In this document: positions 15,344 through 38,830 of the stretch, piece after piece | Layout of the letters: each line of letters begins with the position of its first letter | Numbering within the stretch: the stretch's first letter is position 1 | Assembly: GCA_027475525.1 (NCBI GenBank) | Contig: JAMWFC010000082.1 | Location: 1,116,001-1,180,000 of the forward strand | Source: Macrolepiota albuminosa | Lineage: Eukaryota; Basidiomycota; Agaricomycetes; Agaricales; Agaricaceae | DNA: 64,000 bases | Direction of reading: 5' to 3' | Notes under the pieces: model-generated | What the model was told of the DNA's origin: nothing | Seen by the model: the letters and a program-made list of their open reading frames with translations, nothing else | The model's database searches: none | Translations under genes and position numbers: made by a program

Positions 15344-15406
15344 GCAGAGGGCACTCTGCAGCGCCCTACACTAAAACGGGCAGACAAGGAGTGCCTGGTC
15401 TCATAT

Positions 15407-17064: not shown

Positions 17065-17069
17065 GCGGG

Positions 17070-18980: not shown

Positions 18981-20751
18981 CTGCCACATAGACCCAGATG
19001 GAGAGGATTTACCTCTTCACCGATACCAGGAGCTCAGGGAGCATGTCCTGGAAGTACGCGCTATGCGTGACAATGAACGGAGGCAAAGCACTTGCCTCAG
19101 GGAGCAGCGTGAAGAGTGGGACGTAGCTGCCCAGTTGCTCAAGGAGCATGAAGTTGTGGACCCAGTGTCACCTGGGGAGCACAAGCGCCCCAATATACCC
19201 GTTACACTGGCAGAGATGCTCGAAGGCAAATTGCCTTCATCCCAGCCCCCTAGCCTGGTCAGCGACAACTTCCGGATGGAAGTGGTGCAGGACTATGGCA
19301 ATGATTCTCTCTTCGCCAAGATAATCGCCAATCCTGACGACCATCCTTGGTTCAGGCATGAGCCTGGTGAACTGATCACGACAGAGAACCATCAAGGGGT
19401 GGCAGTGGTCTGCCTCCCCCATATGCAAACCATTGTTATGCGGGTCTTGGACCAGGCCCATGCACTGGTGGGGCACTTTGGTGCCACCTGGACATTGGGC
19501 TACATCCAGAGATGGTATTGGTGGCCACGTATGGCCCAAGAAGTGACTAAGTTCTGTGCCTCATGCGCAGCATGTCAGAGGGCAAAGTTGCCCCCTGGAT
19601 CCCCTCCTGGGAAGCTACACCAGCTACCTGTGCCAGTGAAACCTTGGGATTCCATTGGAATGGACTTTGTAGGTCCCTTTCCCGAGTCCAGAGGGTTTGA
19701 TTACCTCTGGGTGGTAATATGCCGCATGACGAGCATGGTGCACCTCATACCGGTGCGAACTACGCTGACGGCTAAGGAGCTGTCATGGATCTACCTTAGG
19801 GAGATCGTTAGGCTGCATGGGCTGCCTAGTACCATTGTGAGCGATCGTGACCCAAAGTTCACGTCTCAATGGTGGAGGGAACTCCACAAACTATTAGGAG
19901 CTTGACTCCTCATGTTGACGTTGTTCCATCCTCAGATGGATGGGCAAACTGAGCGGGCCAACCGCAGTATAGGGCAGATTTTGAGAGCAGTTGTTTGCCC
20001 TGACCAATGGGACTGAGTAGACTGGTGTCCACTCACTGAGTTTGCGATTAACGCAAGTATTTCAGAAATGACAGGGTATGCACCCTTTGAGCTCAATGGA
20101 GGGTACTTGCCCTCCATGCTGCATGAAATTTGCACTGATGTGGGGGCCCACCAAGGAGTTGTTGAGTTTGCCAGGCAGGCCCTGGAGAATATTGCGGTGG
20201 TGCATGACGCCATCATAGAGATGCAAGTCTTTCAGGCAAAAAACACTAATCACCGTAGGCAAACAGACCCGCCAATAGCAGTAGGAGCGTTGGTCTATCT
20301 GTCAACATGTAACCTGAGACTCCCAAAGAGTCGGGCAAGTAAACTCTGCCCAAAATGGGTAGGCCCATACCACGTTCTAGACGCAGAGCCAAGTACCTCC
20401 AACTATGTGTTGGAGCTGCCTCTGGCATTACAGGAATGACACATTGTTCCAAAGTTTCACGTGTCGCTGTTGTGACCATATAGCGTGTCTGACAGTGCGC
20501 TATTCCCTAACAGGGCGACCCCAGGCCCCTATGATTTTGGGGCTCGAGATGATGACAAATGGTTTGTCGAGTGCATCATTGGGCACCAGTGGACTGAGCG
20601 TAATACACTCGAGTTTGAGGTGTGCTGGTCCCTCGGAGACACAACATTGGAGCCACACTCCCATTGCTCCAAGTTGGCGGCACTTGACCATTATTTGGAG
20701 TTGAGGAGCGTTAAGCACCCACATCAATTAAATAAGCATGCCGGCGCTTAA
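18981..20751 (+). pseudogene. Integrase and chromodomain of element A
   Basis: Continues in frame from RNase H. The zinc-binding HHCC part is HALVGHFGATWTLGY with CASCAACQRAK. The catalytic core has the Asp of IGMDFVGPFPE, the Asp of TIVSDRDPKF and the Glu of DGQTERANRS. TGA codons interrupt at about 19905, 20014 and 20437, all explainable by C-to-T or G-to-A changes. The end, WFVECIIGHQW...LEFEVCWSLGDTTLE (20560-20660), is a chromodomain-like module, which in chromoviruses steers integration to modified histones. It is slightly degenerate: E keeps VRWSLGDTTWE. Confidence 0.87.
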
Positions 20752-20828
20752 TTTGATTGGCAGTGCCGATCACGGCTTGGCTGAGTTGGTCAGCAGCTGT
20801 GGCTGAAACACGTCTTAAAAGGCAAAAT

Positions 20829-20850
20829 TTCTTTTTTGCTTTCTTCTCTT
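20829..20850 (+). promoter_or_regulatory. Pyrimidine tract before ORF3 of A
   Basis: A T/C-rich run (TTTCTTTTTTGCTTTCTTCTC) ends five bases before the ORF3 ATG. B (28491-28502) and E (38636-38660, minus strand, ending CTCAG) have comparable tracts. It could be a 3' splice site or a fungal CT-rich promoter element. Confidence 0.4.
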
Positions 20851-21021
20851 AACCATGGACAGCATGGCCGTGGACCGAAGTGAGCAGCAGCAGCAGTTTG
20901 AGTTTGCGCCGTCGGTCTTACCGTCGGCTGAAGAGGGGGGCAGATGGCTCCCCCACTGACCCAAAATGCGCCCCAGTGAGGACAATTGCAACAGGCTGTG
21001 GGCTTCCCACAGCAGCAGGCT

Positions 21022-21175
21022 ACCCGCTGCAGCAGCCAGTGATCAGTGGCTATCTGCCACACCAACTCATGCAGGGCAACTTCATGTCCCAGAACGCAAC
21101 CCGCTGCAGCAGCCAGTGATCAGTGGCTATCTGCCACACCAACTCATGCAGGGCAACTTCATGTCCCAGAACGCA
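21022..21175. repeat. 77-bp perfect tandem duplication 4
   Basis: Copies are 21022-21098 and 21099-21175, in A ORF3. Confidence 0.97.
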
Positions 21176-21292
21176 TCTGTGGGTGGCTATCAGCCCCAAC
21201 AACCAGTAGCAGGTGCTTATACACCACATCATGCAGAGGGCCAATCCCAGCAACAGGCCTACGGGGGGCTAGTCAGCCCCCAAGCAGTGCCA

Positions 21293-21446
21293 GGATGGGG
21301 GCAGTTTGCCCCCACTATGGCGAGAGGGGCTATGGGCGCACATCCTTTGCCCCAGTTTACTGCTCCAGTGGATGGGGGCAGTTTGCCCCCACTATGGCGA
21401 GAGGGGCTATGGGCGCACATCCTTTGCCCCAGTTTACTGCTCCAGT
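21293..21446. repeat. 77-bp perfect tandem duplication 5
   Basis: Copies are 21293-21369 and 21370-21446, in A ORF3. One extra base matches by chance. Confidence 0.97.
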
Positions 21447-21613
21447 GCACTACTCTGGCATGGGTGGTGTGCCCGTAATGATGCCGTACCCCATGGCTTG
21501 ATGGGGGCATGGGGTGCAATGCCCCAGTACAATGCCTTGTATGAGGCAACAGCCAAGGGAGGCAGGTCAGCTTCCCTGTCAACCACAGTACCAGTTGACA
21601 ATCTAGAGGGACG

Positions 21614-21767
21614 CCAAGCACCCCTTGTGCAGGCCACCATGGCCATTGAGAGTACAGAAACTCTCAATACAGAACTAAGCATCAGTTCATCCAAGCACCC
21701 CTTGTGCAGGCCACCATGGCCATTGAGAGTACAGAAACTCTCAATACAGAACTAAGCATCAGTTCAT
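21614..21767. repeat. 77-bp perfect tandem duplication 6
   Basis: Copies are 21614-21690 and 21691-21767, in A ORF3. Confidence 0.97.
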
Positions 21768-21879
21768 CGGCTGATGCCGACAGAGAGCCTGGCCAAGCTC
21801 TCCTTGCTACAGCGGCTGGAGATGCCACACCAATCCGAGCCCAGCTCAGAAGAAGAGTCATGTCCTCGACACAACAAAG

Positions 21880-22033
21880 GAAAAGCATGGGCTGTCGAGC
21901 CCAGTCTCAACCAGGACTTAGTCCTGGCTACCCTTCTCCAATGCCTGGGAGACAACGAAAAGCATGGGCTGTCGAGCCCAGTCTCAACCAGGACTTAGTC
22001 CTGGCTACCCTTCTCCAATGCCTGGGAGACAAC
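21880..22033. repeat. 77-bp perfect tandem duplication 7
   Basis: Copies are 21880-21956 and 21957-22033, in A ORF3. Confidence 0.97.
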
Positions 22034-22844
22034 GGTACGATATACTTGCAGAGTCATGATACCTCCGCGATGCGGAGGCGGTCATCCTCATCAGCTGGAT
22101 GATGGACGACATGGATCATATGTGCGCCCAGCGCAAAACTGATCTTCTTGCCTTATTGGCGCTTGTAAGCGGCAGAATACACCCCTGAGTCAGGACACCA
22201 ACTCCAGCAAAAGGGTGTGTCAGCAAGGAGTGGAGGACATGCCCTCCTGCTCGATTCAGTTGAGCGTTGTTGCCCCCAGCCAGGAGGCTGGACTAGGACG
22301 GGACATCCTTCCCTATGAAGATGCCCCTGCTCATCCAGCACCTCACCAGCGGCGCATCTGAGGTCGCATCTTCGCGACCATTATCTGTAGTATCCACCAT
22401 GCACTCTGGGGAGCAGAGTTCCAGGGGCATGAGTACATGCCCCACCGAGGCTAAGGCCTCACAACCTCAAAAAGATCGTTGGGGTAAGCACCCGGAAGAG
22501 CATGCATACATCAATGTGCACTTCCCCGAGAATGCCCCAAAAAGGGCCCCAGGGGCTAACATCCCCTTCTTACCCACAATACTGGTAGAGGGCCTGCGAG
22601 CCCGATTCCCACGGTGTGTGTGGGCAATGGACCCATGGTCTGATAAGTCTGTGCCAGAGAGGCTGCCATCCCCGCCTCTGATGACGATTGGTATGAGGAG
22701 CCTGAAGAGGCTCGCATGGAATCCCCTGTGCCGCACAAGACGGCAGCACAACGTATGGCACGTGAACGGCGCAACAGCAATCAATGGGCCAAGATGGACC
22801 GTCAGGCGCAGGATAGCGCCAAACGAGGAGCTGCCCTCCTCGAG

Positions 22845-22998
22845 GATGAAACTGGGCGCATCCCTGATGCGCTCAGTGTTGTGATCTACCGCAATCACAC
22901 TGTTGAGCACCAGAACTCATTGATGAAACTGGGCGCATCCCTGATGCGCTCAGTGTTGTGATCTACCGCAATCACACTGTTGAGCACCAGAACTCATT
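22845..22998. repeat. 77-bp perfect tandem duplication 8
   Basis: Copies are 22845-22921 and 22922-22998, in A ORF3 across the TGRIPDALSVV segment. Confidence 0.97.
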
Positions 22999-24454
22999 TT
23001 TGGCATGGAGTTATCTCCCCAGTTCTATTGGTCGCCAGTGACCAATACTATCTTCATTGGGCAAGAAGCCTACGCAGCCAGGTCCTTCGAGGCCAATAAA
23101 GAGGGCAATGCCGCATCAACGCCCCACAACAGTAAGGTGTACCAAGTGGCACCTCGCAGGTTTCCCCGCAGTCCTCGAGAAGTCCGCAGGCTTCATTCAC
23201 TGGTGAACAACCAGTTTACGCCGATTTGTCAGTGTCAGTTTGGCTATCTATTGCTCAACAAATTCAAGCAGGTGGCGCTAAACTGCCACCCTACTGCCCA
23301 AGACAGAGCCATGTCTCACTTACTCGACAAGGTCCCGTATAAGACCATCATGGTACCCTTCACAAGTCCAGAGGAGTGGAAGAACATCCCATGAATGATT
23401 GTGCCAACGTGGATCTATCACCGCAAAGAGGAAGGGAGAATTGCCTTCATTGGCCTTACTCCCCCTGATCCAAAGCAACCGTTTGCTTTGGACTACCTGG
23501 GCTCATATGCCCTCCTCTATGGGCATTCTGGGATGCCCAACGTATGGACCGGTCTGGCCATGGACCGTGCCATGCGCATTCATTGGTGCAGCCTCTTTGG
23601 GTTTGCGCATGTGTGCACTCTCAGTGCCAGCGGCCCCTCCAAGACCACGGTACACAAGTACCTGGCCTATGTCTTTGCAAGACCAGGCCTCTACAAAGAG
23701 GCTGTGGCCAAATACAAGGTGGCTACGGGGCAAGTCTTTGTGCCTCTCCACGCCAATGACCCTAACTTTGAGGCTCAGGCTGTGGACATCCCAGAAGCAT
23801 CAGCTTCCATGTTCACCACTTTGGACGCGTTATGCATCCTTTTCTACAATCAAATTCTGGTCAGCTAAGCTGACCATGCTTATACCTATGGGGTCACCTA
23901 CTTGGCCCACATCTTCTTCAGTGACAGCTGGCTCTACAATGAGGTGGCCACCATTGACAACGAGAGGCTGCAACACCTCAACCATTACGGGACACCCCAG
24001 TCCATTGCTCAGTGGGATGGGTAGTGCGAGGCCACCATTGGTGATCAACAGCACCTTATGCTCCAGCAGCAGGATAGTTGTTGTGCTTATGACAACGCAC
24101 TCACCAAGGAGATGTACCTCCTTATTGGGCAAGACATTCATGCCCGCAAGCTCTGGACGTGCCAGTACCCATCCGACAATGAGGATCTTCCTGATCCCCA
24201 ACCATCTATCCTGGGGCCAGTCGTTGACCCCACTCTAACACTGTCCCCCCTCTGGGACTATGACAATTCACTGCCCATAGCAGGGCCATTGGGCACTTCC
24301 TATGAGCCCGCACCCAAGGATGAACTCCTCAACTATAACATGGATGACACAACTGCCGATCTATTCCAGGAGCCTGGGGACTCTCCAATTGCCCCCATCT
24401 CTGACTTACCGATGGCCTGACCATTGGAGTATTTTGAGACCATAGTTTGGTCTA

Positions 24455-24465
24455 ATTGGGGAATG
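24455..24465 (+). promoter_or_regulatory. Polypurine tract of element A
   Basis: TTGGGGAATG directly precedes the 3' LTR. It is weaker than the six-G tracts of B and E. Confidence 0.65.
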
Positions 24466-24770
24466 TGTAGCGTAGCTCGCTATGTGGCATTGGCCACATA
24501 GCTTTACTTACTGTAGTCAATATTATATTATTATTATAATATAATATTATTATTTACTGTACTATAAATAGTTTACATGTGCTGCTTACCAAGCAGCTTA
24601 TTTTGTGTTTATACTACATAGTCAATAGACTTACTGTACTATAAATAGTTTACATGTGCTGCTTACCAAGCAGCTTATTTTGTGTTTATACTACATAGTC
24701 AATAGACCGGACTGGTCTGATTCTGTGCAGTATGAACCTTAAGCTCTTACTTGACTGTAACTTCATTACA
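24466..24770 (+). repeat. 3' LTR of element A (with duplicated 77 bp)
   Basis: Begins TGTAGCGTAG and ends CTTCATTACA. It is 305 bp as given. Without the duplication at 24554-24707 it is 228 bp, exactly the length of the 5' LTR. Confidence 0.94.
24554..24707. repeat. 77-bp perfect tandem duplication 9
   Basis: Copies are 24554-24630 and 24631-24707, in the 3' LTR of A. The 5' LTR has one copy. Confidence 0.98.
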
Positions 24771-26773
24771 AGAAGAGGCCGCTAGTACAGCGAAATGACT
24801 AGAAGGTGGGAAACAATTTCCCACTATGGAGAAGGAAGTTGAGTTGGGGCAAGCTCGGGCGAGCTTGCTGAGCAATAGTCCTGCACTTATGGTGCTGGAA
24901 CAGGAAGCTGACAAGTATGAGCGCACTCTGAAAAGGGGGAAGGAGCTCAAAAGGACTGGTAAACTCAAAGTACAGGGTGAAGCGGCAACCCACAGCAGGA
25001 GAGCTGAGGACAGTGAGCCTCAGAAGGTGGGTGAATGCCAACCAATGTTGTCAAAGATCAAGGTTGAGGACCTTGTGTTGGATGAAGAGAGTAGGGCAGA
25101 GACATTGTTGTCGCTCATGATGGAGAGATTAATCTGGGATTGACCGGTCCTGCACCTGATGTTTGAATGGGCATTTGATCTCAGAATGCCCACAAAATGG
25201 AATGAACTACTGTCTTCCATGTATGCATGGAGGGGATTGCATTGGAAGGTGAAAGGAGAGCAGTTTTGACAGGCAACTGCCAACACAGTGTCTCAGCCAA
25301 GCAAGATAATGTTTAATGGAGTATCCATCATTGCAAGAAGGCAGAAGCAACTGCCTCTGGTTCAGTTGCATACACTGGATGAGAGTGAACTGAGTATTGC
25401 AGCCCTCAGAGAAAGATATGAGCAACCAAAGTCAATTAAGGGAGCAACAGTGCGCCCCCAGAGACCAAGGGCTGATAAAGGGAAAAGTAAAGCCATGGGG
25501 CTGACTTGGGATGATATCCCTGTGTTGCGGCAGCAGTGGCAGGAGGAATTTGCAGATATTCTCAACGGCACCAAGGAGGAATTGCCTCCGTGGCGAGGGT
25601 TAACCATGAAATCAATCTGATTGAGGAGAACAAATTGTACTGATACCACCTCCCAAGATGTCCAATGGCTCTGCAGCAACAACTGCGAGACAAGACTAAC
25701 TGGTACTTGAGGGCCCAGTGGTGGGAGGCTAGACCAGCCTCCCAGGCAGCTCCTTTGTTGTGTATCCCCAAGAAAGATGGAACGTTAAGGATGGCATTAG
25801 ACACTTGACAGCACAATGACAACACCGTCAAAGATGTAACTCCCTTGCCAGACCAGGAAGTAATCCAGGAAGATGTGGCATGCACAAAGTTCAGGTCTAA
25901 GATTGACCTGACAGATGCATATGAGCAAGTTTGGATTCAAGAAGGCAATATTCATAAGATGGCGTTCTCATTGATTACGGGAACATATGTCAGTAATATC
26001 ATGCAGATTGGAGACTGCAATGCACCTGCTATGTTTCAGAGGTTGATGACCTCTATATTCCAAGACATAATTGGACGGTTTGTACACATATACTTAGACC
26101 ATATATTCATCTTTTCTGACACCATCAAGGACCATGAACAACATCTCAGAGTGATTTTCAAACAGTTGAGGTCAAGCTTGCTGTACCTCAGATGGAAGAA
26201 ATGCAAGCTCTACTGCAAGGCAATCAATTGCCTCAGACACAAGATCGATAGTCAAGGCATTCACCCTGACAACAACAAAGTGGATTGTATATGCAAATGG
26301 AGAGTGCCACAAATGTATAATGATGTTCAGAGGTTTGTGGGCTTGGTAAACTATATAGGCAACTGTTTGCCTGACATTACCGCATACATGGGTCTGTTAA
26401 TGGCAATCATGCAGAATGGAGCACCATTCATATGGTGGCCTATTCACCAGCAGTGCTTCAAGATGATAAAACACATCTGTTAAAAGACCCCAGTGATTCA
26501 TCCTATTGACCCAAAATGAGCTGAGCCTATCTGGCTCATCTGTGATGCCTCAAAGACTGGTGTTGGTGCCATGTACAGCCAAGGTCAGACTTGGCAAACA
26601 TGCCATCCTGCTGGATTCATGTTGAAAAAGTTCACATTGGCACAGCAGAATTATGCAGTGCATGAACTGGAAACATTGGCGATACTTGAGGCACTACTCA
26701 AGTGGGAAGACAAGTTGATGGGATATAAAATCCACATCATCACTGATCACAAAGCACTGGAGTTCTTTAAAAC
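24771..26773 (+). pseudogene. Reverse transcriptase / RNase H of element B (YLDH)
   Basis: Continues B after element A. The pre-RT linker frames are 24826-25143 and 25288-25620. RT shows PVLRQQWQEEFADILNGTK, AAPLLCIPKKDGTLRMALD, SKIDLTDAYEQV and an active site IYLDHIFIFSD (about 26092), where the second catalytic Asp is His. That substitution should abolish polymerisation. Breaks: a frame change near 25600, TGA at 25807 (Arg in relatives), TAA near 26480 and TGA near 26517. RNase H begins LICDASKTGVGAMYS with its Asp intact and runs into the N gap after IITDHKALEFFK. Confidence 0.88.
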
Positions 26774-26873
26774 NNNNNNNNNNNNNNNNNNNNNNNNNNN
26801 NNNNNNNNNNNNNNNNNNNNNNNNNNNNNNNNNNNNNNNNNNNNNNNNNNNNNNNNNNNNNNNNNNNNNNNNN
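26774..26873. other. Assembly gap (100 N)
   Basis: Exactly 100 Ns inside the RNase H-integrase region of B. By comparison with A, several hundred bases are missing. Confidence 0.99.
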
Positions 26874-28387
26874 GCTGAAAGAGCATGGAGGCAACAGTGT
26901 GCCTCCACCATCAGTTACCAATGACTTTAGAGCCAGGGTGAAACGGTTGTACCTGGAGGATCCACTGTGCTCTGAGGTCTTGGATCACTCAGATGAGCAC
27001 CCCTGCTTCAGAGTGGATGTGAAATATTTGTGATTGTGATGTAGTATGCCTGCCACAAAATTGAAACCTCATTACCGCCATACTTACACAGGCTCATGAG
27101 GTGGTGGGCCATTTTGGAGCCAGCAAGACGTCGGAATACCTGAGGCAGTGGTACTGGTGGCCTCAGATGTACACGGAAGTTGCCAAGTTTTGCCAGACGT
27201 GTGTGGCATGTCAGAGGGCAAAGACTAGTAACCAGAAGCCTGCAGGGAGGCTGCACTCCCTGCCAATCACAGTGAAGCCTTGGGACTCCATCAGAATGGA
27301 CTTTGTGGGACCGTTCCCAGAGGCCAGAGGATCTAATTACCTCTGGGTAATAATCTGTTGCATGACCAGTATGGTGCACTTGATTTCAGTGCACACTACA
27401 ATGAAAGCTTCTGAGCTTTCGTGGATTTACCTCAGGGATATTGTGAGGCTTCATGGCCTCCCAAGCTCAATTGTGAGTGACAGGGACTCAAAGTTCACGT
27501 CACTATGGTGGCGTGAGCTGCACAAGTTGCTTGGAGCAAGACTGTTGATGTCCACATCCTTTTACCCTTAGACTGATGGGCAGACTGAGCGAGCCAATCA
27601 GAGCGTGGCTCAGATATTCTGGACCGTGGTCAGGCCTGACCAGCAAGATTGGGTAGACAGGATCCTGCTGACTGAATTTGTGATTAATGCCAGTGTGTCA
27701 GAGATCACTGGATATGCACCATTTCAACTGAATGGAGAGTATCTACCCTCTATGATTCAGGAACTCAGGGGGGCTGAGGTAGTGCACAAAGGCATAAGGG
27801 ACTTTGCACAGCAAGCATTGGAGAATGTGGCGAATGCACATGATGCTATTATTGCAGCGTGAGTTTTTCAGACTTGACATGCAAATGAACAGCGGAGGGC
27901 AGATCCAGAACTAACGCAGGGTGCATTAGTGTACTTGTCAATGGAGAACTTAAAGCTTCCCAAGGGGAGGGCAAGTAAATTGTGTCCAAAATTCATTGGA
28001 CTCTATAGAATCCTGGAGGCCAAGCCATGCACATCATATTACATGCTGGAGTTGCCTGCAGGATTGCAGGCAAGGAGGATTGTGCCCAGGTTTCATGTAT
28101 CTTTACTCTGACCCTACAAGGCAAATGATGATGCCTTGTTTCCAAATCGAGTAATGCCTGAGGCATATGACTTCGGAGCAAGTGACAAACAGGAGTGGTT
28201 TGTTGAAGAGATACTGGGACATTGGTGGGTGGGTGGAAGGAATCTTGAATTTGAGGTTTGGTGGAGTGCGGGAGACACTACATGGGAGTTGCTGAGTACG
28301 TGTTCTCAGCTGGCAGCATTGGATCGCTATTTGGAATTGCAAGGGGTGCGACAGCCAAGAAAGCTATCTAAGTGCTCACGTGCTTAG
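26874..28387 (+). pseudogene. Integrase and chromodomain of element B
   Basis: From 27101: GHFGASKTSEYL and CQTCVACQRAK (zinc-binding part), then IRMDFVGPFPEARG and SIVSDRDSKF, then after a stop at 27571 DGQTERANQS, giving Asp, Asp and Glu of the core. The C-terminal part carries LPKGRASKLCPKFIGLYRI and ends in a chromodomain-like QEWFVEEILGHWW and LEFEVWWSAGDTTWEL (28190-28290). Stops at about 27571, 27860 and 28109 each fit a C-to-T or G-to-A change. Role as in A; inactive here. Confidence 0.86.
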
Positions 28388-28527
28388 ATGAGATTAGGGA
28401 TAAGATTGTCATCCTGGGATTAGAAATGATAAGATTGTTCTGGTTGGATCTGTCGGAGGCGGATCAGGTTATGTAACCTGACAGAAGCAAATTTTTTTTT
28501 CTGGAGACTGCCACATCAGCTTCAGTA

Positions 28528-30110
28528 ATGTCGTATTCCTTGCCTGGCCAAATGCCAAGTCAGCAGAAGCAGAGCCCACAGGGTTCTGGTGGGGGGGGGA
28601 GAGCAGCAGACAATTCAAATGAGTAGTGTTAGTGCGTTGGTACTAATGCCAGGATTGGCAGCATACCCGACAATGGCTCAATTTGGGCAGGCCCCACCAT
28701 TTTTTCTGCAGTATTATCTGATGCCATTTTTCCCAGGTCCCGGTGGACCTGGGCAGCAGGCTATGCAAGTGCAAGTCCCATGGGGAATGATGATGCTGCA
28801 GGCACAACAGGTGGTCCCCATGGAGGTGGATGAGGAGTGGAGAGGGAGTAAGCAGAAGGAGATGGAATTCCCTTGGAAGAATTGTGAGTGGTTGCCAGTA
28901 AGGGAGGTGAGGATGAGAAACGAGGTGGTGCCACCTTGGAGAGAGAGAGCAGTTGCTGCTGCGAGAACCAGCAAGAAGAGTTGTGATCACGAGGGAGTCT
29001 GTGAATAGGAGGCGGGAGGAGCCTCCATTTTGAGAAGACCGAAATAGACCAAGGGTGCAGGGTGCACAGCAACCCAGGTCACCTCTGCAACCACGGTTGC
29101 CTCCAGCATGTAGGCAGTCCCCATCTCCGTGTAGGTTGTCAGCAAGCAAAAAAAGGAAGGGGAAAGCATCGGAGGATCAGGTGGATTCTCAGATTGAAAT
29201 AGTGTGGCAGTGATTAGTAGCTGCAGGGCAATGTGTTCCCCCAGAATCAGAGTTTCTGAAGGATCCGGTGGCCCAAGTAGTGATTATGGGTCTGCTGGAC
29301 GAAATCGTTATGCTGCAGCAGCGTAACGACAACATGATCAAGACGTTTGCCAATGCAATGAAGCGGCAGGCAACAACGCCAGAGAAGCAGACTGAGGCTA
29401 AGCGCCTCAGGATGCAGGAGGAAGTGGGGGCACCCATAGCACCTCCAGAACTTAGTGAGGCAGGAGAGGTAACACCCTGCTCTGAGGACTGGGGTGATGA
29501 TGAGATGATAGTGGATGACAAAGACTGGGGCCTGAAAACATTGGTGCACACACCTGGCATGGTGAAGGTGCAGAACAGACTGAAAGGAGCCCTGCAGACA
29601 GCAACAATGTGGTTCCTGGACAACGTGCCAACAGGATCTGGAGCTGAAGAGATTGTATTTTTCCTGCCTGCGGTACAATTTGAGAAACCACACAAGTCAT
29701 ATGTGCCAGAGCCACCTCGTCAAGACGCACAGACAGACAACAAGGTAGAAAATTGCTTGCCTACACCAGCCACTATGGGCCTTGCTGACAATGGTGAGGC
29801 TAGCAATTATAGACCAAGCACTGAGGAGACACTGTCAGAAGGGAAGACAGCGGCGCAGAAGAATTTGTGGCTGAGTCGCAACCAAAAGTCTGCCATGCGT
29901 AGGAAGGCTGAGGCCAACAAGCAGGCCAAGGTTGACCAGGACAGGGTAGAGCAAGCCACGGGGCATATACCTGAAGGGCTAGGAGTATTTGGAGAGGGGA
30001 CCACCACTTTTACTACTCATGGTTGTCAAATACCATGTTTGTGGAAGATGAGGCACTGCAGGCCCAGGAGCAGGAAGAGAAGGGGACAAGGTATCATCCT
30101 ACCTCAATAC
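28528..30110 (+). pseudogene. ORF3 of element B, N-terminal part
   Basis: Starts at ATG 28528 (MSYSLPGQMPSQQKQSPQ). A run of G near 28590 shifts the frame to the next readable part (28589-29008), rich in Pro, Gly, Gln and Met. From 29268 a 307-codon frame begins with a possible coiled coil (LLDEIVMLQQRNDNMIKTF), matching LLNQIELMKRQHVAALEQ of E. It continues with a Lys/Arg/Ala-rich helix and ATGHIPEGLGVF (A: TGRIPDALSVV; E: SGRIPNGLGV). The coding sequence is cut at 30110 by a solo D LTR. Function unknown; see the entry for A. Confidence 0.72.
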
Positions 30111-30546
30111 TGTCAGGGGACTCCTCATTTCTTCCTTTTCTCACTCCTTATCTCTTCACTCTCCTTCCATTCATTCTCTTATTTCTTCTGACATTATTTC
30201 ATTTTACTGTTTCTATTCTTTCAGCACTATCTGTTAGTACTACTCTCAGCCCTTGAGATGCTCTGGTTCTTTAGCCACCATTCAGACAAGTGTGGGCCCA
30301 CTCAGCACCGCTTCCAGACCGCTTATATAAGCCAGAGTTTGCCAGAGTTTGCCCCTTATTTGTACAAGTGTTTGTGTAGGCAATTTTCGAGTTTTTAAGG
30401 TTTTGTTGTACTGTACAGTTGTTTCCCATGCTTCAGAGGCCCCAGAAGTGTTCAACTTGGCATAGGAAATCCCTAGACTTGTTCTCTTTGGATCTCCCTC
30501 TGCCAGCTGTGTGACTGAGCCACAGCCTCTAGAGGTCGCCCTTACA
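30111..30546 (+). mobile_element. Solo LTR of family D inside ORF3 of B
   Basis: 436 bp from TGTCAGGGGACTCC to CGCCCTTACA, the reverse complement of the LTRs of element D (55123-55621, 60150-60648). It lacks one 63-bp segment that both D LTRs carry between two 20-bp direct repeats. It is flanked by AATAC (30106-30110) and GATAC (30547-30551), a target duplication with one transition. Confidence 0.9.
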
Positions 30547-31473
30547 GATACTGCTGATAAAAACTGCACTGCAGGGGTTCCCCATGAATCCCCAAGAGGC
30601 CTGTAAATTGCTGGTGCTAGTGGACAACAAGATGAAGGCCTTACCACTCCATATTGAGGCATACTACCTCCTATGTGAATTCCAGCGCATATCAATGAAC
30701 TATAGTCAACCGTGGAGGGATCACACAATGGAGCTGGTTTGTGGGCCTGAGTTCAAGCAAGTCCTTCCTCCCCTGGACCTGGCTGTCCTGCCTACACCTG
30801 AGGGGTATCTCCAATGGAAAGGGCAGGGAAGCAAACCCGTTTTCACGCTTGTGGGATTTGACTTGGAAGGTATACAACATACCTTTGATCTTGATTGCCT
30901 AGCACAGAGCGTGCTGTATTTTTCATGCCCTGGTATGATGAACACTGTCCTGGGCATTCCCATGGACTATGTGTTTTGTATTCATTTCCGTACTCTGCTG
31001 GGGCATGCTATCACTGAGGAGTATCACCTCAAAGGTGACCCTGAAGCTGCTTTGCCAGGGTACTGGCATTCATCATGGCTCAACCTGGGATGTACCGTGA
31101 GGCCATTGATGCCCACAATGCACCTAACCCCAGTCAGCCATTTGAGCCAATGTCATGGACAGATGTGCAGTTTATGACTCCACACTTCAATGACTCCATG
31201 TCAGCCAACATTAGTGAGGCTGACATACTGAGGGTCCTACTAGCAAATTGCATGCCAGTGGAATGGATAGACCACGCCTACACATTTGGTGTGGTCTACC
31301 TAGAGAGCCATTTCCAGACACCAAATGCCTCTCTGGACGTGTATAGGGACATTGACGATGAATGGCACTGTAGACTCAACCTCTACGGTGAGCCATCAGC
31401 AATTCTACAGTGGGATGGATGGAGGACTCCTACCGCAGATGATGTAATTTGCCTCCAAGCTTTGCTTGGATGA
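30547..31473 (+). pseudogene. ORF3 of element B, conserved C-terminal part
   Basis: Frames 30584-31177 and 31075-31473, joined by a frame change near 31080. The region shared with A and E reads EAYYLLCEFQRISMN, TFDLDCLAQSVLYFSCPGMM, GIPMDYVFCIHFRTLLGHA, then PGMYREAIDAHNAP, EWIDHAYTFGVVYLE and SAILQWDGWRTPT. It ends at TGA 31473. The identity of these blocks in three elements whose flanks differ argues for protein-level conservation. Confidence 0.75.
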
Positions 31474-31847
31474 GAATTTGCTCAAGGTCATGCATACCTT
31501 GAGGAGGGTTTCTACTACCCTGTTGGAATGGAACCATGTCATTGCAATCTTTGGATGCATGGCCCATACCAGGGTCCCCTACCGCCCCCATCAGTGGTCA
31601 CTACAACTACTAACAACCCGTCGGTAACGTGACCTCTTGCAGAGGCATCTACTTTGGCTAACACTGACTTCAATATGGCCACCTTTCTTGAGAGCAAGTT
31701 ACACCGTCCGCCATCTGCATGATATGGCAAGCATTGATCATAGTATCGTCAGCTAACCTCGACACTAATAAACTACAGGAAATGCCTTGCTGGAATGTGG
31801 GGAGGGGTGATTGCGAGCGCTCCCCTTTTAGAGACTGTAACCAGTCT
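31474..31847. other. Untranslated region between ORF3 and the 3' LTR of B
   Basis: ORF3-like coding may continue in fragments to about 31740 (E continues about 230 codons beyond QWDGW with acidic and Pro-rich sequence). No clear frame here. Confidence 0.4.
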
Positions 31848-31859
31848 GAAAGGGGGGTA
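31848..31859 (+). promoter_or_regulatory. Polypurine tract of element B
   Basis: GAAAGGGGGGTA directly before the 3' LTR. E has the near-identical ATTGGGGGGTA at the same place. Confidence 0.8.
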
Positions 31860-32109
31860 TGTAACCAAGTGACCTAGAGCCTGAGCTCTAGGTACCTGAA
31901 CTTATCTTTTGTGCTGAACAACCTAACTGTTGTTCAGCAGATCTAATCTGGATTGCGTAGTAATTAGTATTATGATAATCATACAATACATATTATATAA
32001 TCACTACGTATACTCATTGCAGCTACCTTATCTAAGGTAGCTTTTTGTTTACACACTTCATAGGACTAGAATTGTATTCCAATCTGGTTCTCTTGTTGAC
32101 TTTGTTTCA
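31860..32109 (+). repeat. 3' LTR of element B
   Basis: 250 bp, TGTAACCAAG to TTTGTTTCA. It is shorter than the 5' LTR by a 15-bp loss near its end. The hairpin is at 32021-32042 with loop TC. Confidence 0.93.
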
Positions 32110-32221
32110 GTCTGGATCCAAAAGAATCCCCGCCTTTGAATGCTGACTGACAGATGTAACATGGAAGTGGAAGTAGTAAGTTAAACATGTATAAATAATC
32201 AGGTGGCTGTAATTGTAGGGA

Positions 32222-33426
32222 TTACAGTGACATATCCAAAGAGCAACTAGGCTTGGAATCTATAATAGCCTCTACTTTAGCAAACGAGGCTCTATCAAGC
32301 CAGAACTTGATGATACTTCCCTCTATTCCAGTAGAACTCCACCTGTTGGGCATGAAATTAGCAAAAATGTCACAGGCCTTGGCATATTGCGTGATTAAAG
32401 GCCTGGTAGAAGTACCCACAAGGCCAAGAACAGAGTTTATGCTGAGGAAGATTAGTTGGCATGTGAAACAACAATGTGGAAAGAGGCCTTCAGTTGCACA
32501 GATATGAAGAGGTACCCAGAATAAAGATTTCTCAAGGCAAATTAAGGTTTTCCTATGGAAAGGTATATACGACACATACAAAATAGACTCCTACTAAGCC
32601 GGCCTAGCATGCCACCAGACCTCAAATCGAGAGCTATATGTCCACATGATAATGTAATTAACTCCATGAACCACATTCTCTCCTCTTGCTCATCTTCAGG
32701 CCAGGAGACCATATGGAATTTAGCAAATGAGGTCTGAAAAGCTTGGTCTGGAAAGGATTTGCCCAAAAAAGACGTATGTTTTGTCCTAGGAAGCCCTCTA
32801 GTAAACATAGAGGGAAGGAACAAGAAAGAATCAGTTGGCCTGTCTTGCTTATACAGAATCTTAGTGATAGAGTCTGCATACCTAATATGGGTCCTCAGAT
32901 GTGAGAGAGTGATAAGGAAGGAGAACCTCCCATTCTTGGAGGAAGAAATATCATGACAATGGAAGAGAATGATGAACTCTTGGGTGGACCTCAATAGAAA
33001 ATTGGCCAGCATAAAACTGGGCAAGTGCACAATCACCATGAACTTTGTGGAAGCAACATGGATAGGGACAGGCATGGGCTCAGTGCCCATAGAGCCTCTT
33101 GCAGAGGCAGGAGGTGGGGTTTTAGTGGGTATGGAACCTGATGATAGAGGGGGATAGGCTGAGGCTGCCTCACCTGAGTTTAGAGCCCCACACTGTGTGC
33201 ATAAAGGCATTTTCTCATAGACCAATAGGTTGCTGGACTTTAATGAGAATTCCTGGTTGCAATTCCAGGATACCAGCCCTGCAAGTGGTGTAGAGGCGAC
33301 TATATGGCACTGGCTACACCACCAAACCAAACACTACTTCAAAAAAAAACCAGCCCTGCAAGTGGTGTAGAGGCGACTATATGGCACTGGCTACACCACC
33401 AAACCAAACACTACTTCAAAAAAAAA
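32222..33426 (+). pseudogene. LINE (non-LTR retrotransposon) 3' end with A-tail
   Basis: A 5'-truncated remnant. Frames 32253-32507, 32555-32737, 32759-32956 and 32969-33157 read VKQQCGKRPSVAQI, NSMNHILSSCSSSGQETIW, LYRILVIESAYLIWVLRCE. The pattern MxHIL..C.....IW followed by LYRIL..ESAxLIWxLRCERV is one I associate with the C-terminal region of agaric non-LTR elements or related ORFs. A run of nine A closes it at 33418-33426. It is frameshifted and poor in CpG. A 77-bp duplication lies in its tail. Confidence 0.6.
33272..33425. repeat. 77-bp perfect tandem duplication 10
   Basis: Copies are 33272-33348 and 33349-33425, in the LINE tail. Confidence 0.97.
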
Positions 33427-34180
33427 GGAGTTAGGAGTCCACAACATATCTGCAATACTATAAAAAACATAATGTGCCTCCTTGTCTTGCATGACATTAT
33501 CAGCACAACTCACCCAAGCCAAATGTTATCTTTGAAATGCTACGGTGCCAATTGCCTAGTCACCACAATATGTTGAGAAGAAGACTCACTTTACAAGTCA
33601 ATCCTACATCATTTCCAACATTACATGATTGCCTTACTATTTTTGATCCCTCTCTCATATTTTTACGAAGCCCTCTGAGCCCTGGTGGCTATAGCAATTA
33701 GTTTTTACTACTCTTTACTATTGAACCTTATTTTTTTTTGTCATATCTAGAGATATGTGCACAGAGCACCACCCCTCAGTCATACTACATTATACTGGTG
33801 CAACTTAAGGATGAGCTCATTTACTTATATATCTTACCTATAATCATACTCACTCATAACTTGTAGACTAAATCTCTATTTACATCTACAGGTAATAAAT
33901 CAGTTGTATTACATTTTACTGGTGTGACTGAGGACTAAATCTCTTATTTACATCTACACAATGGAGTGACAGTGGTCAAAACTGCCAGAGGCTGGAAAAA
34001 AAATTAGGAATTTTCATGGATTTTTGTAGAATTTCCTGTGTTTTTAGGACTGAATACTGTACTAACATGTTTTTCAGTAGTTTAACATTTAAAATGTTGG
34101 TCCATTAATTTACAAGAAAACTTTTGAGCCTACCAGACAACTGATAGCTCCCCAATCCAATGGCACCATAACAATATTGA
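33427..34180. other. No gene recognised
   Basis: AT-rich sequence. CATACTACATTATACTGG and a diverged second copy (33778 and 33903 areas) hint at an internal direct repeat. No coding signal. Confidence 0.45.
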
Positions 34181-34990
34181 AAAGAAGCCACTGTGCATGC
34201 ATGTCAGGCCCAAACAGCTCTCAGAGCATTGACCACAATCCTGCTTCTGATTTCTGAAATGGAAACTGCATCAGGACCAAAATCAATGAATGATAACAGC
34301 ATTGGGAACTCACTAGTTATCATAATAGTAACTTTTGAATTGGAGTCTGGGTATTATGGTGGTATAAACAATCTTGAGCTCAGATGAAGACATTTGGTCA
34401 ATGGAGGAGGAAGATAAGTTTTCAGATGGCACTGGGCATGAATCATTCCTGGAATTTGATGAGAAGAATGTGAGGAAATTGAAAGAAAGAGAGGACCAAG
34501 CAGCAGAAGGGCTGATTTTCCAGCTGGAGATGGGGAAGTATATAAAGGAATGGAAGAAAATTGAAGCCAACTAACTAATCACTTGGTTACAATGGACTAT
34601 CAAAACATACACAATGACATGTCCTTGAAGCACATAAATAGCAGCAAAGGAGGGAGGAAGCAAAGATATTGTGTGTACTCTGAACACAAGGACATTGGAA
34701 AGAGTTCAACTGCCCAAATAGTAATAACCTGCAGGTCACATTGATGCAAGATTTCTTCAAGACCCATCCAACAATGGTTTCAGGTGATGAAAATGCTGTC
34801 ACCATAATAGATAGTGATGTCAATATGGAAGATGCAGCAGTGCTTGATGAATCTGAATAGCAAGGCTGTATACTAGCAGAACTGGTAATAGATGATTTGA
34901 ATGAGGAACTATCAGAGTATGATAGCAGAACTGAAACAGATGATGCAGAGTTAAATCCTGCATCATCAAAACCCTTCTCATCCCACAACT
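34181..34990 (+). pseudogene. Coding-like remnant, charged (unassigned)
   Basis: A 66-codon frame at 34374-34574 is strongly charged and ends LEMGKYIKEWKKIEAN. Further fragments to about 34990 include acidic and Ser-rich stretches. WKKxEANR-like segments occur in ORFs that accompany DNA transposons in agarics, as far as I recall, but that link is weak. No catalytic motif is present. Confidence 0.3.
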
Positions 34991-35125
34991 CTGAGTCTGA
35001 CTATTGACTCCTCACTGTCTCACCACTCAAACATATTTGTCACAATGTCCCTTCTCATCCCACAACTCTGAGTCTGACTATTGACTCCTCACTGTCTCAC
35101 CACTCAAACATATTTGTCACAATGT
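34972..35125. repeat. 77-bp perfect tandem duplication 11
   Basis: Copies are 34972-35048 and 35049-35125, just left of the left LTR of element E. Confidence 0.97.
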
Positions 35126-35129
35126 CTTG

Positions 35130-35302
35130 TGTAACCTTGGGTTACGCGTTAGAACTATCTGTGTGTATCACACAGTGCTAAATCAGACCGCAATATCAGA
35201 TTTGACTAGTACTTAGTGTGAAAACAAGATGTTATCTTATGTAATACTCTATGAAATGATTATAGCGTTGTAGACACTAGTAACATGGGTGACTCCATTA
35301 CA
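35130..35302 (-). repeat. 3' LTR of element E
   Basis: 173 bp, TGTAACCTTG to CCATTACA on the plus strand. It differs from the other LTR at seven sites, each a CG versus TG or CA difference. Confidence 0.93.
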
Positions 35303-35313
35303 TACCCCCCAAT
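35303..35313 (-). promoter_or_regulatory. Polypurine tract of element E
   Basis: Minus strand ATTGGGGGGTA immediately before the 3' LTR. Confidence 0.8.
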
Positions 35314-35661
35314 GAGACCGAATACTTGGTCTTAGGAAGGGAGGTGGAGTGAGATAAAGGATGCACGAGAGTGCAAACAACAGATGACTAACACACGTAT
35401 CGCGTGGCTGCAAGGCGTTAGTAGTTATCCGCAGTGTAGATGTGTCTTCTGGACACAAGAGGAAGCCGTCCTTATCAGACAAGGGCGCATGTTGCACCAG
35501 CAGTAGATGGAACGTATTTATATATATAAACAATTATAAAAAAAGACAAAAAGATTGACCCCTCCTCTGGGTCCGCTGTATCTACACACAACTCTAAGTG
35601 CATTTCAGCTGGAATGGTTCGAGTGAAATACTCAGAAGTACCTACACAACAAAATATGGGT
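35314..35661. other. 3' untranslated region of element E
   Basis: No gene seen between ORF3 and the polypurine tract. An A/T-rich run lies at about 35518-35553. Confidence 0.5.
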
Positions 35662-38617
35662 CTAAGACCCGTCTGACGATGCCCCCGCACCCGCGCCCGT
35701 CTCAGTCACCTTTGACTCCTCCTCCAGTGCGATGTTAATCGCGGGAGGAGGAGGCACCGATTCCATCCTCGGTGGAGTGATAGGCCCCTCGACTACAGGC
35801 GTGTCTACCACCATAGAATCAGTTAGTGCGACGTTAATTGCTGAAACATTGGTGGGTAGCATACCATGCGCCGCCGTGTGTGGTATGAGATTGACCCAGC
35901 TTGGGTCTACGTCAGCTGCAGGCATGTCCTGCACTGCCGGGCACTTTAGAAGGTGGACCTGGTTCGGGTCCATGCCAATGAGGTAGTAGAGGCCATTGGC
36001 CTTGGGGTTCTCGGAAAGACAACTTTTTTTGTTGTGCTTGAACATAAGACAATAATGATCGTCTTCGGTCATCTCCCGCCATCCATCCCACTGTGGGATT
36101 GTGGGAGGGGTGCCGTATTTGTCCAAGCACTCCATGCGCTTGTTGTCAATTTGTCGAAAGATGTCCATAGACATCGTGGGTGCGTGGAACTGCTGTTCCA
36201 GGAAGACCACGCCGTAGGTATATGCATGGTCCACCCAGTCAGCAGGTATCCGATTGTGTAGTAAGATGCGTAGTGCATTGTCATCCGAGAAGTTCCGTGC
36301 AAAGTCATTGGGGATGTGCATGGGGTGAAGTTCCAGCTGGGGCCCTCTCTGGGGCTCGAACAGCTGGTCAGGGAACATATCATTGTAAAAGGCAATAGCC
36401 TCACGGTACAAACCCAGGCAGGCCATGACAAGGGTCATGCGCCACACAATCACAGGCTTGGCTGCGCTGTTAGCGCAAAGAGCTCGACACAAGGCGAACC
36501 TGAAGAGGGTTCGCCAGTGCATGTGGTAGGCATGATCCACCGCAATGCCTTGGTAAGTATTTTCCAAACCAGGACGACCAAAGATCAGCACGTACTGCGC
36601 AAGCTGATCCAGGTCAAACGGTGTGGCAGGGTCTTGAGCATGCATTACACGCAGCACGGTCGAGCCGTCTTCTTTCGTGCGCAGATAGCGCCCCGGAATG
36701 TGTCAGTGCTCAACGAGCGCCAGGTCATCAGCCCCCTGGATTGGGCTGATGAGGTTCTGATATCGCGGGTCCTTCATCAGGAGCATCATTGTTCAGTCAT
36801 GTAGCGACTCATTGGTTCGCTGAGCAAACATCTGAAGCTCCATGATGAGGAGATAGGTGGCAATTTGTTTATGACGGGGAGCGTGCTCATTCGAAAAGTA
36901 CTTGTAAAGCTGGTCCAGCTCTAATGGAGTGCGGGGGAGGCCATGAGGAGAATACTTGTAAATGAAGGGGAATACTTGTAGATAATGCTGGCAGGAATGC
37001 CAGCACGGTGCCCAGAAGAAAACTCATACACCGCTGCCCGATTGGCCTCGGCTCCCAACAGCACAGTATTTGAATGATACGAATAATATGTGCAGTGGCT
37101 GAGTGCTCCTCTGAAGCACAAGTTTGTGCGCTCGATATCGAGCGGTCCCCACACCTTCACCCCCAATCCATTGGGGATTCTCCCTGAGAACTCATCTTCG
37201 GCCCTCTGTTTGAGGGCATGCAGCTCCTTGGCACAGATCACCTTCTTTTTTGCAATGCGCTTATTGCACGATACTCTCTGGAATTGGTCTGCTGCCGATT
37301 CCCCTTACTCTGCCTCCTCCTCATGCTCCAAGCTCGACTCTCCATAGTCGCTCTCGTCGGATAAGGAGGCCATGGGTGCTTTGCCTTTTCCAGGCATGGG
37401 ACGATTTCTTGAGGTCACCACCAGACCGTCATATTGCTCCGGGGAGCGAGGGTCGGTGGTCAGGATGACCACGGGAAAGTGTGCCTGCAGAGCGGGCATG
37501 GTGACGGGCAACAAAAACAACATAGATACCTTCCTGGCCTGTGCGGGAATGCCTGCCGGGAACTCTATCACCTCCAGCTTGGAGGCATCAAGAGGAGGCT
37601 TATGGCCTTGACGTTGGCGTGCAGACCCCAACTTGGCCGGGGCGGAAGGTTTGAGTGGTGGCTGAGCCACTGGAGGGGCAGGTGCATTTTGTGCCAGAGT
37701 TCTCCCTCCAGGCTCAGCGCAAGGGACAACAGTAACGGGTGCTCTTGGCGCCACAGCGACAGTTTTGGGCACCCTAGATGGGGCCTGAGACGATGCAGTT
37801 TCCCGCTGACCCAAGGACAGACCTGCCAAGGGTTCACTGACCGCAGCCAGCGACTCTGACGAGGCCTGAGGACCCAGATCAGGTAACTGCGACGATGAAG
37901 CAATGGGCTGAGCAGGCTGCTCACAGCATGCAAATTGCGCATCCGACGGCATCCTTGCCCGTGGAGGTTCGACCGGTCGACTGGGCTGATACTTAGCTCT
38001 CTTGACCTCGGCAGTTGGTTTCTCAAATGTTGAAACTTTGCACTTAGACGTGCATTCAATCTGTTCTAGCGCTGCAACGTGCTGCCTCTTCATCAGCTCA
38101 ATCTGGTTGAGCAATCCCTCATCACCATCATGGCCAGACTGTCCTGCAGGAAGGACGCAGTTGCAGGGACTGGCTGTCCTGCTGCTTCCAATCTGTCTAG
38201 CAGCACGTCTGGCACTGCTAATCTCTGTGCTTGTGGCACAGGCTCCTCATACAACTCTGCCATGGGCCGATGAGCCCATGGCACTGACGGCGGCCCCGTC
38301 ATCACACCTGCATACGTTGGATACAACACAGACGAGTGTGAGGACGGTTCCTGATAATAACGCTCCCGATGCCCATAGCGCCCTTCGTCATCGACCTCCA
38401 TCTCTTGCAAGTGGAGGGGTGTTTGATATGGTAGCGGCTCCTTGCGGCCCAGATAGGCCACACCCACTGACTGCAACTGACTTGCCGCTGGATATGGCAG
38501 CTGCCTCTGGTACTGGGAAGATATTTGTATATTCGGGGGTCTCCCCCCTCTACTAGAGCCCTGCCAGCTCTGATCACTCTTTTGCGGCCCCCAATAGGCC
38601 ATTTTAAAGCGACACAT
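35662..38617 (-). pseudogene. ORF3 of element E (reference copy)
   Basis: About 2.95 kb. Possible starts are 38617 (MCRFK) or the better-aligned 38602 (MAYWGPQKSDQSWQ). Pieces: 38617-38093, Pro/Gln/Tyr-rich; 38114-37305, a possible coil LLNQIELMKRQHVAALEQ followed by a long Pro/Ala/Ser linker, then LVVTSRNRPMPGKGKAP and an acidic patch; 37241-36921 with SGRIPNGLGVKVWG and GHRAGIPASIIYKY; 36657-35662, 331 codons uninterrupted with FDLDQLAQYVLIFGRPGLEN, HWRTLFRFALC, LGLYREAIAFYND, DWVDHAYTYGVVFLE, IPQWDGWREMT and an acidic, Pro-rich C-terminus. The three frame changes are small. The enzyme class is unknown. The His, Asp and Trp residues in the blocks are the ones kept in all copies. Confidence 0.78.
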
Positions 38618-38635
38618 AGACTACGTGTATTGGGA

Positions 38636-38660
38636 CTGAGGAAAGAAAGAAAAAAAAACA
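38636..38660 (-). promoter_or_regulatory. Pyrimidine tract and CAG before ORF3 of E
   Basis: On the minus strand a run of T with TTCTTTCTTTCCTCAG lies about 34 bases before the MAYW start. It has the form of a 3' splice acceptor and sits where a spliced ORF3 message would need one. Confidence 0.4.
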
Positions 38661-38830
38661 ATCTCCCAACTCCGCCAGTGGTGTAAATAACCACAAACAC
38701 ATGCCACCTGGCCCCTCATCAGCGATCATAGTCATGTAAACAGTCACAATCACAGACACAATTAGTAGCCACCTGGTTAGTTACCAGCTATCAAAGTGGA
38801 CTTTGTCCACATTCCACCACCACATGCACG

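What the first reader, a model, noticed from the sequence alone, without database searches (positions are those of the whole stretch)
20855..38617. ORF3: a conserved extra protein after pol in three separate chromoviruses
Seen: A (20855-24420), B (28528-31473, less the solo LTR) and E (38617-35662 minus) each carry about 830-1060 codons between the chromodomain and the polypurine tract. The C-terminal third keeps ordered blocks in all three: LDxLAQ-like, H(W/F)RTL-like, G(L/M)Y(R/K)EA, DHAYT(Y/F)GV, QWDGW. LTRs and much of the N-terminus differ, so conservation is at protein level. Known: typical Ty3/gypsy chromoviruses end with integrase or chromodomain; extra 3' ORFs are known in some plant and animal LTR elements, usually env-like or antisense. 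Inference: an unassigned accessory protein kept through divergence of this fungal lineage. I see no signal peptide or transmembrane span, so it is not an obvious envelope.
Basis: partly seen in the sequence, partly recalled or inferred. Interest (0 to 1): 0.87.

Follow-up and report, generated by a model that had tools for sequence, protein, structure and literature searches.

The report
Orphan third gene in mushroom retrotransposons
Three jumping genetic elements in this mushroom-like genome carry, after the usual enzyme genes, a third large gene that selection has kept in related copies but that resembles no protein of known function, so it points to an unexplained job in the life of these elements.

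Summary
ORF3 lies between pol and the 3' LTR in elements A, B and E. All three window copies are broken, but relatives in the same genome are not: of 16 copies fetched for their long frames, 15 have an ORF3 frame of at least 900 aa. Among 48 pol copies picked only for an open pol frame, 45 are followed by ORF3 on the same strand. Four clades align over the whole protein at 30-45% identity to one reference; gag (three clades) is 44-55%, pol 69-73%. Within clades ORF3 is constrained: dN/dS 0.11-0.38 (14 pairs; pol 0.07-0.17, 8 pairs). Relatives occur in Termitomyces, Lyophyllum shimeji and unnamed JGI/ENA assemblies. Searches of Pfam, NCBIfam, PHROGs, PDB and BFVD gave no significant match. No membrane span was seen, so a classical envelope is unlikely. 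Models show a mostly helical C-terminal region with no recognised fold. Best reading: a soluble accessory protein made from its own start codon, probably acting on a host factor or the element's RNP; that last step is inference. Accessory ORFs in this place, and unassigned ones in fungal chromoviruses, are known; this family was not described in the listings I saw.

The parts
20855..24420 (+). ORF3 of element A (broken copy; five 77-bp duplications inside)
   Evidence: tblastn/blastn with A-clade ORF3 of L039; duplications
28528..31719 (+). ORF3 of element B (broken; interruption about 30107-30553; a stop at 31473)
   Evidence: tblastn/blastn with B2-clade ORF3 of L029
35662..38602 (-). ORF3 of element E (three frame pieces; C-terminal 346 aa open)
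35943..37193 (-). conserved C-terminal region of ORF3-E (residues 480-890 of the E-clade relative L021)
   Evidence: alignments A1 and A4; coordinates worked out
12085..24770 (+). element A, LTR to LTR, inserted in element B; TSD AGAAG
12085..12312 (+). 5' LTR of A
24466..24770 (+). 3' LTR of A (contains a 77-bp duplication at 24554-24707)
8460..32109 (+). element B, LTR to LTR, interrupted by A; TSD GTCTG
8460..8724 (+). 5' LTR of B
31860..32109 (+). 3' LTR of B
35130..46684 (-). element E, LTR to LTR (LTRs 35130-35302 and 46512-46684, 96% identical)
38834..39079 (-). C-terminal, chromodomain-like end of pol in E (approximate), upstream of ORF3
   Evidence: reading frame; weak Pfam Chromo match in the E-clade relative L017
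31805..31859 (+). hairpin and GGGGGG polypurine tract before the 3' LTR of B

Best explanation
ORF3 is a genuine third gene of one lineage of Ty3/gypsy elements. SHOWN: it sits in sense between pol and the polypurine tract, follows 45 of 48 open pol copies, has a start Met shared by four clades with a purine at -3, and is under purifying selection. INFERRED: it is translated as a separate protein of about 950-1080 aa rather than as an extension of gag-pol. The protein is probably soluble and intracellular: a Q/P/G-rich N-terminal third (likely disordered, judged from composition), a short conserved block, basic segments that could direct it to the nucleus, and a mostly helical C-terminal region of about 410 aa. 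It most likely helps the element by binding a host factor or the element's RNP (nuclear entry or escape from silencing). That would fit its being the least conserved gene between clades, and one that can be replaced together with the 3' half of an element.
For: Linkage: 45 of 48 pol copies with frames of at least 1200 aa have an ORF3 C-terminal match 1.9-3.3 kb past the pol match on the same strand (coordinates copied by hand; clade labels assigned by eye). LTRs 99-100% identical in 9 of 10 fetched elements; 5-bp TSDs in 7 of the 7 flanks printed. Selection: ORF3 dN/dS 0.11-0.38 over 14 within-clade pairs, pol 0.07-0.17 over 8. Identity to one reference between clades: pol 69-73% (RNase H to chromodomain part), gag 44-55% (three clades, A not included), ORF3 30-45%. 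Shared start: M1 and two Gly invariant in the 8-row alignment; purine at -3. Not envelope-like: hydropathy maximum 1.44, 2-4 Cys, 1-3 sequons in four clade representatives. Model of Termitomyces P0121: confident at about 250-370 and 440-590. 3'-half replacement: L017 and L038 are 90-100% alike through pol and the ORF3 N-terminus, then 72-88%; dS 0.19 in pol against 0.70 in ORF3.
Against: No evidence of expression, location or binding partner. No fold or motif points to silencing, transport or RNA binding. Basic runs are common and no NLS predictor was run. ORF3 dN/dS is low, not above 1, so an arms race is not shown; and of the 7 pairs measured for both genes ORF3 is higher than pol in 5 (1.6-3.1 times) but slightly lower in 2 (L029/L031, L033/L035). 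The single mosaic may be ordinary template switching. The route of expression is open: a splice-acceptor-like stretch is seen only in E, the pyrimidine-rich stretch before the ATG is weak in B3, and upstream folding stands out only in A. The N-terminal third was not in any structural model.
Confidence: 0.4

Rival explanations
1. ORF3 is a second structural protein of the particle (scaffold, nucleoprotein or minor capsid) that works with Gag.
For: Low-complexity N-terminus (sequence) and helical C-terminal region would suit an assembly protein; it follows 45 of 48 open pol copies.
Against: No profile similarity to the element's own Gag (probability 0.1%). Gag already carries a CCHC knuckle and protease. 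It is less conserved than Gag between clades.
Confidence: 0.25
2. ORF3 is an enzyme of unknown fold (the invariant D, H, W, R residues being an active site), for example acting on nucleic acid or host chromatin.
For: Clusters of invariant polar and aromatic residues in the C-terminal region: RPG, HW, DHAYT, WD.W.
Against: No significant Pfam, NCBIfam or PDB profile match; the invariant residues may be structural.
Confidence: 0.15
3. ORF3 is an env-like protein that lets the element pass between cells or hyphae.
For: Position as env, own start codon, and in E a splice-acceptor-like stretch just before the start.
Against: No membrane-like span, 2-4 Cys, 1-3 sequons; no such acceptor-like stretch seen in the A, B2 and B3 copies printed; no significant match in BFVD. 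No signal-peptide predictor was run.
Confidence: 0.08
4. ORF3 is a captured host gene carried passively, or open frames kept by chance.
For: Third ORFs of LTR elements can be acquired genes (PMC5408684 abstract, rotifers). A single-copy host relative is not excluded: a Lyophyllum query gave 86 matches in the own genome, which were not checked one by one, and at least two lie outside the element copies I had listed.
Against: dN/dS 0.11-0.38, four clades with a common start, 45 of 48 linkage.
Confidence: 0.07

Closest known systems
Sense additional ORFs between pol and 3' LTR of plant LTR retrotransposons (aORF-3S; Athila, Bagy2), PMC7264820 (part 1 of 3 of the text read)
   Same: Position and strand; presence in most copies.
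   Different: Those are called env-like because some have transmembrane domains and, in Bagy2, a spliced message; here no membrane span and no splice signal common to the clades was seen.
ORF3s of bdelloid rotifer LTR retrotransposons, PMC5408684 (abstract and outline read)
   Same: Third ORF after pol in an LTR element, non-envelope in several lineages.
   Different: Those match known proteins (GDSL esterase/lipase, DEDDy exonuclease, paramyxovirus-derived env-like protein); this one has no significant match.
[quoted passage not shown] Figure 3 itself and supplements not seen)
   Same: Same host kingdom and element group. The Tcn1-like element of a spikemoss described there also lacks a PBS and has a T-rich stretch after the 5' LTR, as our elements do.
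   Different: The text held gives neither sequence nor conservation of that ORF; whether it is this family cannot be told here.
Antisense additional ORF of Botrytis Boty (named in PMC7264820)
   Same: Fungal LTR element with an extra ORF before the 3' LTR.
   Different: Opposite strand.

Membership tests
Ty3/gypsy LTR retrotransposon | Paired LTRs with short target-site duplication | tested here: met
   9 of 10 fetched elements with LTR pairs 99-100% identical, none found in the tenth (L028/L027, which holds 100 N); 5-bp TSD in 7 of 7 flanks printed, read by eye
Ty3/gypsy LTR retrotransposon | Pol order RT-RNase H-integrase | tested here: met
   Pfam RVT_1 in L018, then RT_RNaseH, Integrase_H2C2, rve in L017, above cut-offs
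Ty3/gypsy LTR retrotransposon | tRNA primer-binding site after the 5' LTR | tested here: inconclusive
   No TGG start in four clades; T-rich stretch instead; only one 8-base self-match, in B3
Chromovirus | Chromodomain at the integrase C-terminus | tested here: inconclusive
   Pfam Chromo E 0.013 and 0.0048, 15.9 and 17.2 bits against cut-off 25.1
Tcn1 clade of chromoviruses | RT/integrase phylogeny with Tcn1 | not testable with these tools
   No Tcn1 sequence at hand; only the T-rich, PBS-less 5' region agrees with PMC2864245
Additional sense ORF between pol and 3' LTR (aORF-3S) | Sense ORF in that place, in most copies | tested here: met
   45 of 48 pol copies with open frames; at least two pairs on contig C59 look like one assembly duplication
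Retroviral/errantiviral envelope | Transmembrane span, glycosylation sites and disulfide-forming Cys | tested here: not met
   Hydropathy maximum 1.07-1.44, 2-4 Cys, 1-3 NxS/T in four clade representatives
Retroviral/errantiviral envelope | Signal peptide | not tested
   No predictor at hand; the N-termini are Q/S/G-rich by eye
Gag/capsid | Profile similarity to the element's Gag | tested here: not met
   hhalign probability 0.1%; profiles are thin (Neff about 2), so a very remote link is not excluded
Any fold in the PDB | Structural match to a solved fold | tested here: inconclusive

The most novel reading that the evidence does not exclude
ORF3 founds a protein family with a new fold that serves as a dedicated host-countering factor (for example against small-RNA or chromatin silencing, or for passage through fused hyphae) of a very successful chromovirus lineage in mushrooms, and is exchanged between elements together with their 3' halves.
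Probability: 0.15. Interest if true: 0.75.

Novelty: new variant of a known kind. Interest (0 to 1): 0.5.

Why it matters
A constrained protein of about 1000 aa, matched hundreds of times in one genome and present in other agarics, is named only 'hypothetical protein' in the Termitomyces and Lyophyllum records listed and may be counted among host genes there. If it is needed for transposition or for evading silencing, it gives a handle on how these elements multiplied in mushroom genomes, and it would show that accessory genes of LTR elements need not be envelopes or recognisable captured enzymes.

Tried and rejected
Known-domain searches gave nothing significant: Pfam on 10 window pieces (two hits below cut-off, E 0.022 and 0.064), on 8 ORF3s (best E 0.056); NCBIfam on 4 (none); PHROGs on 6 C-terminal regions (one hit at E 0.061); PDB profiles (best E 0.31 to a TPR protein and FRIGIDA 0.45, then 0.22 to FRIGIDA); viral contigs (18 pattern matches, none confirmed); Rfam on the window (none at gathering score).

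Protein-database searches reach only sequences sharing exact words, and about 8000 candidates each were scored, so wider spread in fungi may be missed. One search listed 120 of 155 hits, all named Termitomyces; one search listed 18 (16 Termitomyces, one Lyophyllum shimeji, one JGI without organism); one search listed 17, all JGI or ENA without organism.

Fold searches: the P0121 model (mean pLDDT 60.8, pTM 0.46) and a C-terminal piece of window E (72.3, 0.69) gave no match above noise in PDB; the first was also run against BFVD (best E 0.70). This does not show that the fold is new. P0121 lacks the Q/P/G-rich N-terminal third, and the first half of the C-terminal region was not folded on its own.

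Expression route. Readthrough from pol: in L029 and L031 the frame is open from the pol TAG into ORF3, but L040 and the E copies are in another frame. Splicing: an acceptor-like stretch before the ATG only in E. RNA structure in the last 150 bases: A z -3.9 and -4.3; E -1.9, -1.5, -1.8; B2 -1.9, -0.1; B3 +1.1. No route is established.

ORF3 as a gag duplicate was rejected. The 77-bp perfect duplications were read as an assembly artefact because the unit is always exactly 77 bp and perfect; this was not tested on reads.

Papers: ten searches ran. None of the titles or abstract starts listed describes this ORF3; most listed papers were not opened. PMC3411680 and PMC3248453 were looked at for passages only; the shown passages do not mention such an ORF. 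The library is open-access only.
Full report
WHAT IS THERE. The window is a stretch of contig C65 of a 100-Mb, 129-contig genome. Its ORF3 relatives with a named source are from Termitomyces and Lyophyllum, so the host is very probably an agaric fungus (inference). The window holds three LTR elements with ORF3. E lies at 35130-46684 on the minus strand (LTRs 96% identical). B lies at 8460-32109 and is split by A at 12085-24770; A and B show perfect 5-bp target-site duplications, E does not. All three ORF3 copies of the window are broken: A has five 77-bp duplications and frame changes, B an interruption and frame changes, E frame changes.

RELATIVES IN THE SAME GENOME. Six-frame searches with the C-terminal parts gave 118 E-type (two are halves of one copy), 150 A-type and 150 B-related matches. 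Only the best candidates are scored, so these are lower bounds. Overlap between lists was not computed, but the E and A lists hold only matches of 75% or more to two clades that are about 36% alike. I fetched 16 copies, chosen for long frames. In 15 of 16 the stop-to-stop ORF3 frame is at least 900 aa; in the other it is 882. Nine of ten element copies fetched with both sides have LTRs 99-100% identical and span 10.9-11.8 kb; in the seven whose flanks I printed a 5-bp TSD can be read.

LINKAGE WITHOUT CHOOSING BY ORF3. I searched with the last 200 aa of pol of a B3 copy (150 matches listed of 1957 candidates) and kept the 48 whose pol frame is at least 1200 aa. In 45 of 48 an ORF3 C-terminal match lies 1.9-3.3 kb past the pol match on the same strand: B3 5/5, B2 17/17, A 11/13, E 12/13 (clades assigned by eye). 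The three misses may come from capped lists or nested insertions and were not resolved. Two pairs on contig C59 lie exactly 228,712 bases apart and look like one duplicated assembly segment, so the independent count is at most 43 of 46.

PROTEIN. Representatives of four clades (A, B2, B3, E) align over the whole protein; in an 8-row alignment the start Met is invariant, with a purine at -3 in the copies printed. Identity to the first sequence is 45, 34 and 30%. Pol (RNase H to chromodomain part) of the same clades is 69-73% and gag of three clades 44-55% identical to one reference. Within clades ORF3 dN/dS is 0.11-0.38 over 14 pairs and pol 0.07-0.17 over 8. Of the 7 pairs measured for both, ORF3 is higher in 5 (1.6-3.1 times) and slightly lower in 2. 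So ORF3 is clearly constrained, usually less than pol. Between clades dS is saturated and no ratio is claimed.

MOSAIC. L017 and L038 are 90-100% identical through pol and the ORF3 N-terminus and 72-88% after that, through to the 3' end; dS is 0.19 in pol and 0.70 in ORF3. The 3' half of one has been replaced, with a junction inside ORF3.

NO KNOWN HOMOLOGY. Pfam, NCBIfam, PHROGs and PDB profiles gave no significant match. Database searches gave Termitomyces proteins (B2 type at 68-78% identity), one Lyophyllum shimeji protein (39%) and proteins of unnamed JGI/ENA assemblies; no Pfam domain is recorded for any of the proteins listed. AlphaFold on Termitomyces P0121 (695 aa, 47 sequences), which lacks the N-terminal third, is confident at about 190-220, 250-370 and 440-590 and poor in the linker; a C-terminal piece of window E was folded with 91 sequences. 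AlphaFold DB was not available, so a known but unsolved fold remains possible.

WHAT IT MAY DO. It lacks the envelope features tested and shows no link to Gag. I favour a soluble accessory factor made from its own start codon and acting on a host factor or the RNP. My estimates: the gene is real, about 0.95; separate translation, about 0.8; soluble and intracellular, about 0.8; host-facing role, about 0.4. How it is expressed is unresolved: a pyrimidine-rich stretch precedes the ATG (weak in B3), an acceptor-like AG follows it only in E, and upstream folding stands out only in A.

GAG-POL. As a by-product, gag (with CCHC and protease) and pol are separated by a single TGA followed by CTA or CTT, reading on in the same frame, in 8 of 8 junctions read out of 10 upstream stretches (two were not read). 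UGA followed by CU is sufficient for efficient readthrough in Ustilago maydis (PMC4207609, passages read), so gag-pol is probably made by readthrough (inference).

PRIOR ART. [quoted passage not shown] Our elements share with its spikemoss Tcn1-like element the T-rich, PBS-less start. No title or abstract start in ten library searches described this protein family. I rate it a new variant of a known kind.

On re-reading my calls I corrected several figures (identity range of the mosaic, element lengths, matched dN/dS pairs, identities of Termitomyces relatives, coverage of the structural model, independence of the linkage count). None required a change of odds.

Noticed in passing
L018:8421, L020:8467, L022:8228, L024:8201, L026:8145, L030:8162, L034:8284, L036:8278: Gag(protease) and pol are separated by a single in-frame TGA followed by CTA or CTT in 8 of 8 junctions read: the UGA-CU context known to cause readthrough in the basidiomycete Ustilago maydis (PMC4207609, passages).
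   Followed up: partly
window 31805-31859, 24415-24463, 35305-35350; L017:5906-5953, L029:5326-5373, L033:5239-5287: A hairpin directly upstream of the polypurine tract is seen in all four clades and the three window copies, with paired changes in the stem (GACCG/CGGTC against GACTG/CAGTC).
   Followed up: partly
window, 18 places (e.g. 5335-5488, 21022-21175, 62026-62179): Perfect tandem duplications of exactly 77 bp throughout the window and in some fetched copies; most likely k-mer overlaps left in by the assembler. They break frames artificially.
   Followed up: partly
G000 contigs C59, C81, C27, C114: Matches recur at fixed offsets within a contig (e.g. C59 by 228,712, C81 by 556,397, C27 by 174,194, C114 by 351,482 bases): probably duplicated assembly segments, which inflate copy counts.
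   Followed up: no
L038 against L017: Mosaic element: pol and ORF3 N-terminus 90-100% identical, the rest of ORF3 and the 3' end 72-88%.
   Followed up: yes
after the 5' LTR of L018, L024, L030, L034: No tRNA-type primer-binding site; a poly-T stretch followed by (G/A)AA(T/C)C instead, shared by four clades.
   Followed up: partly
G000:C90:892080-893357 and C107:1101130-1102407: Two ORF3-like frames of 998 aa seen only in the list of the Lyophyllum query; possibly a further clade.
   Followed up: no
window 8460-32109; L032, L031: Element A is inserted inside element B; elsewhere a B2 element (L032/L031) lies within A-type element sequence.
   Followed up: partly
L023:4505-5161, L025:4505-5161, L027:4505-5161, L039:641-1297: A second open frame of 219 aa overlaps the A-clade ORF3 in 4 of 4 A copies looked at; may be a composition effect.
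   Followed up: no
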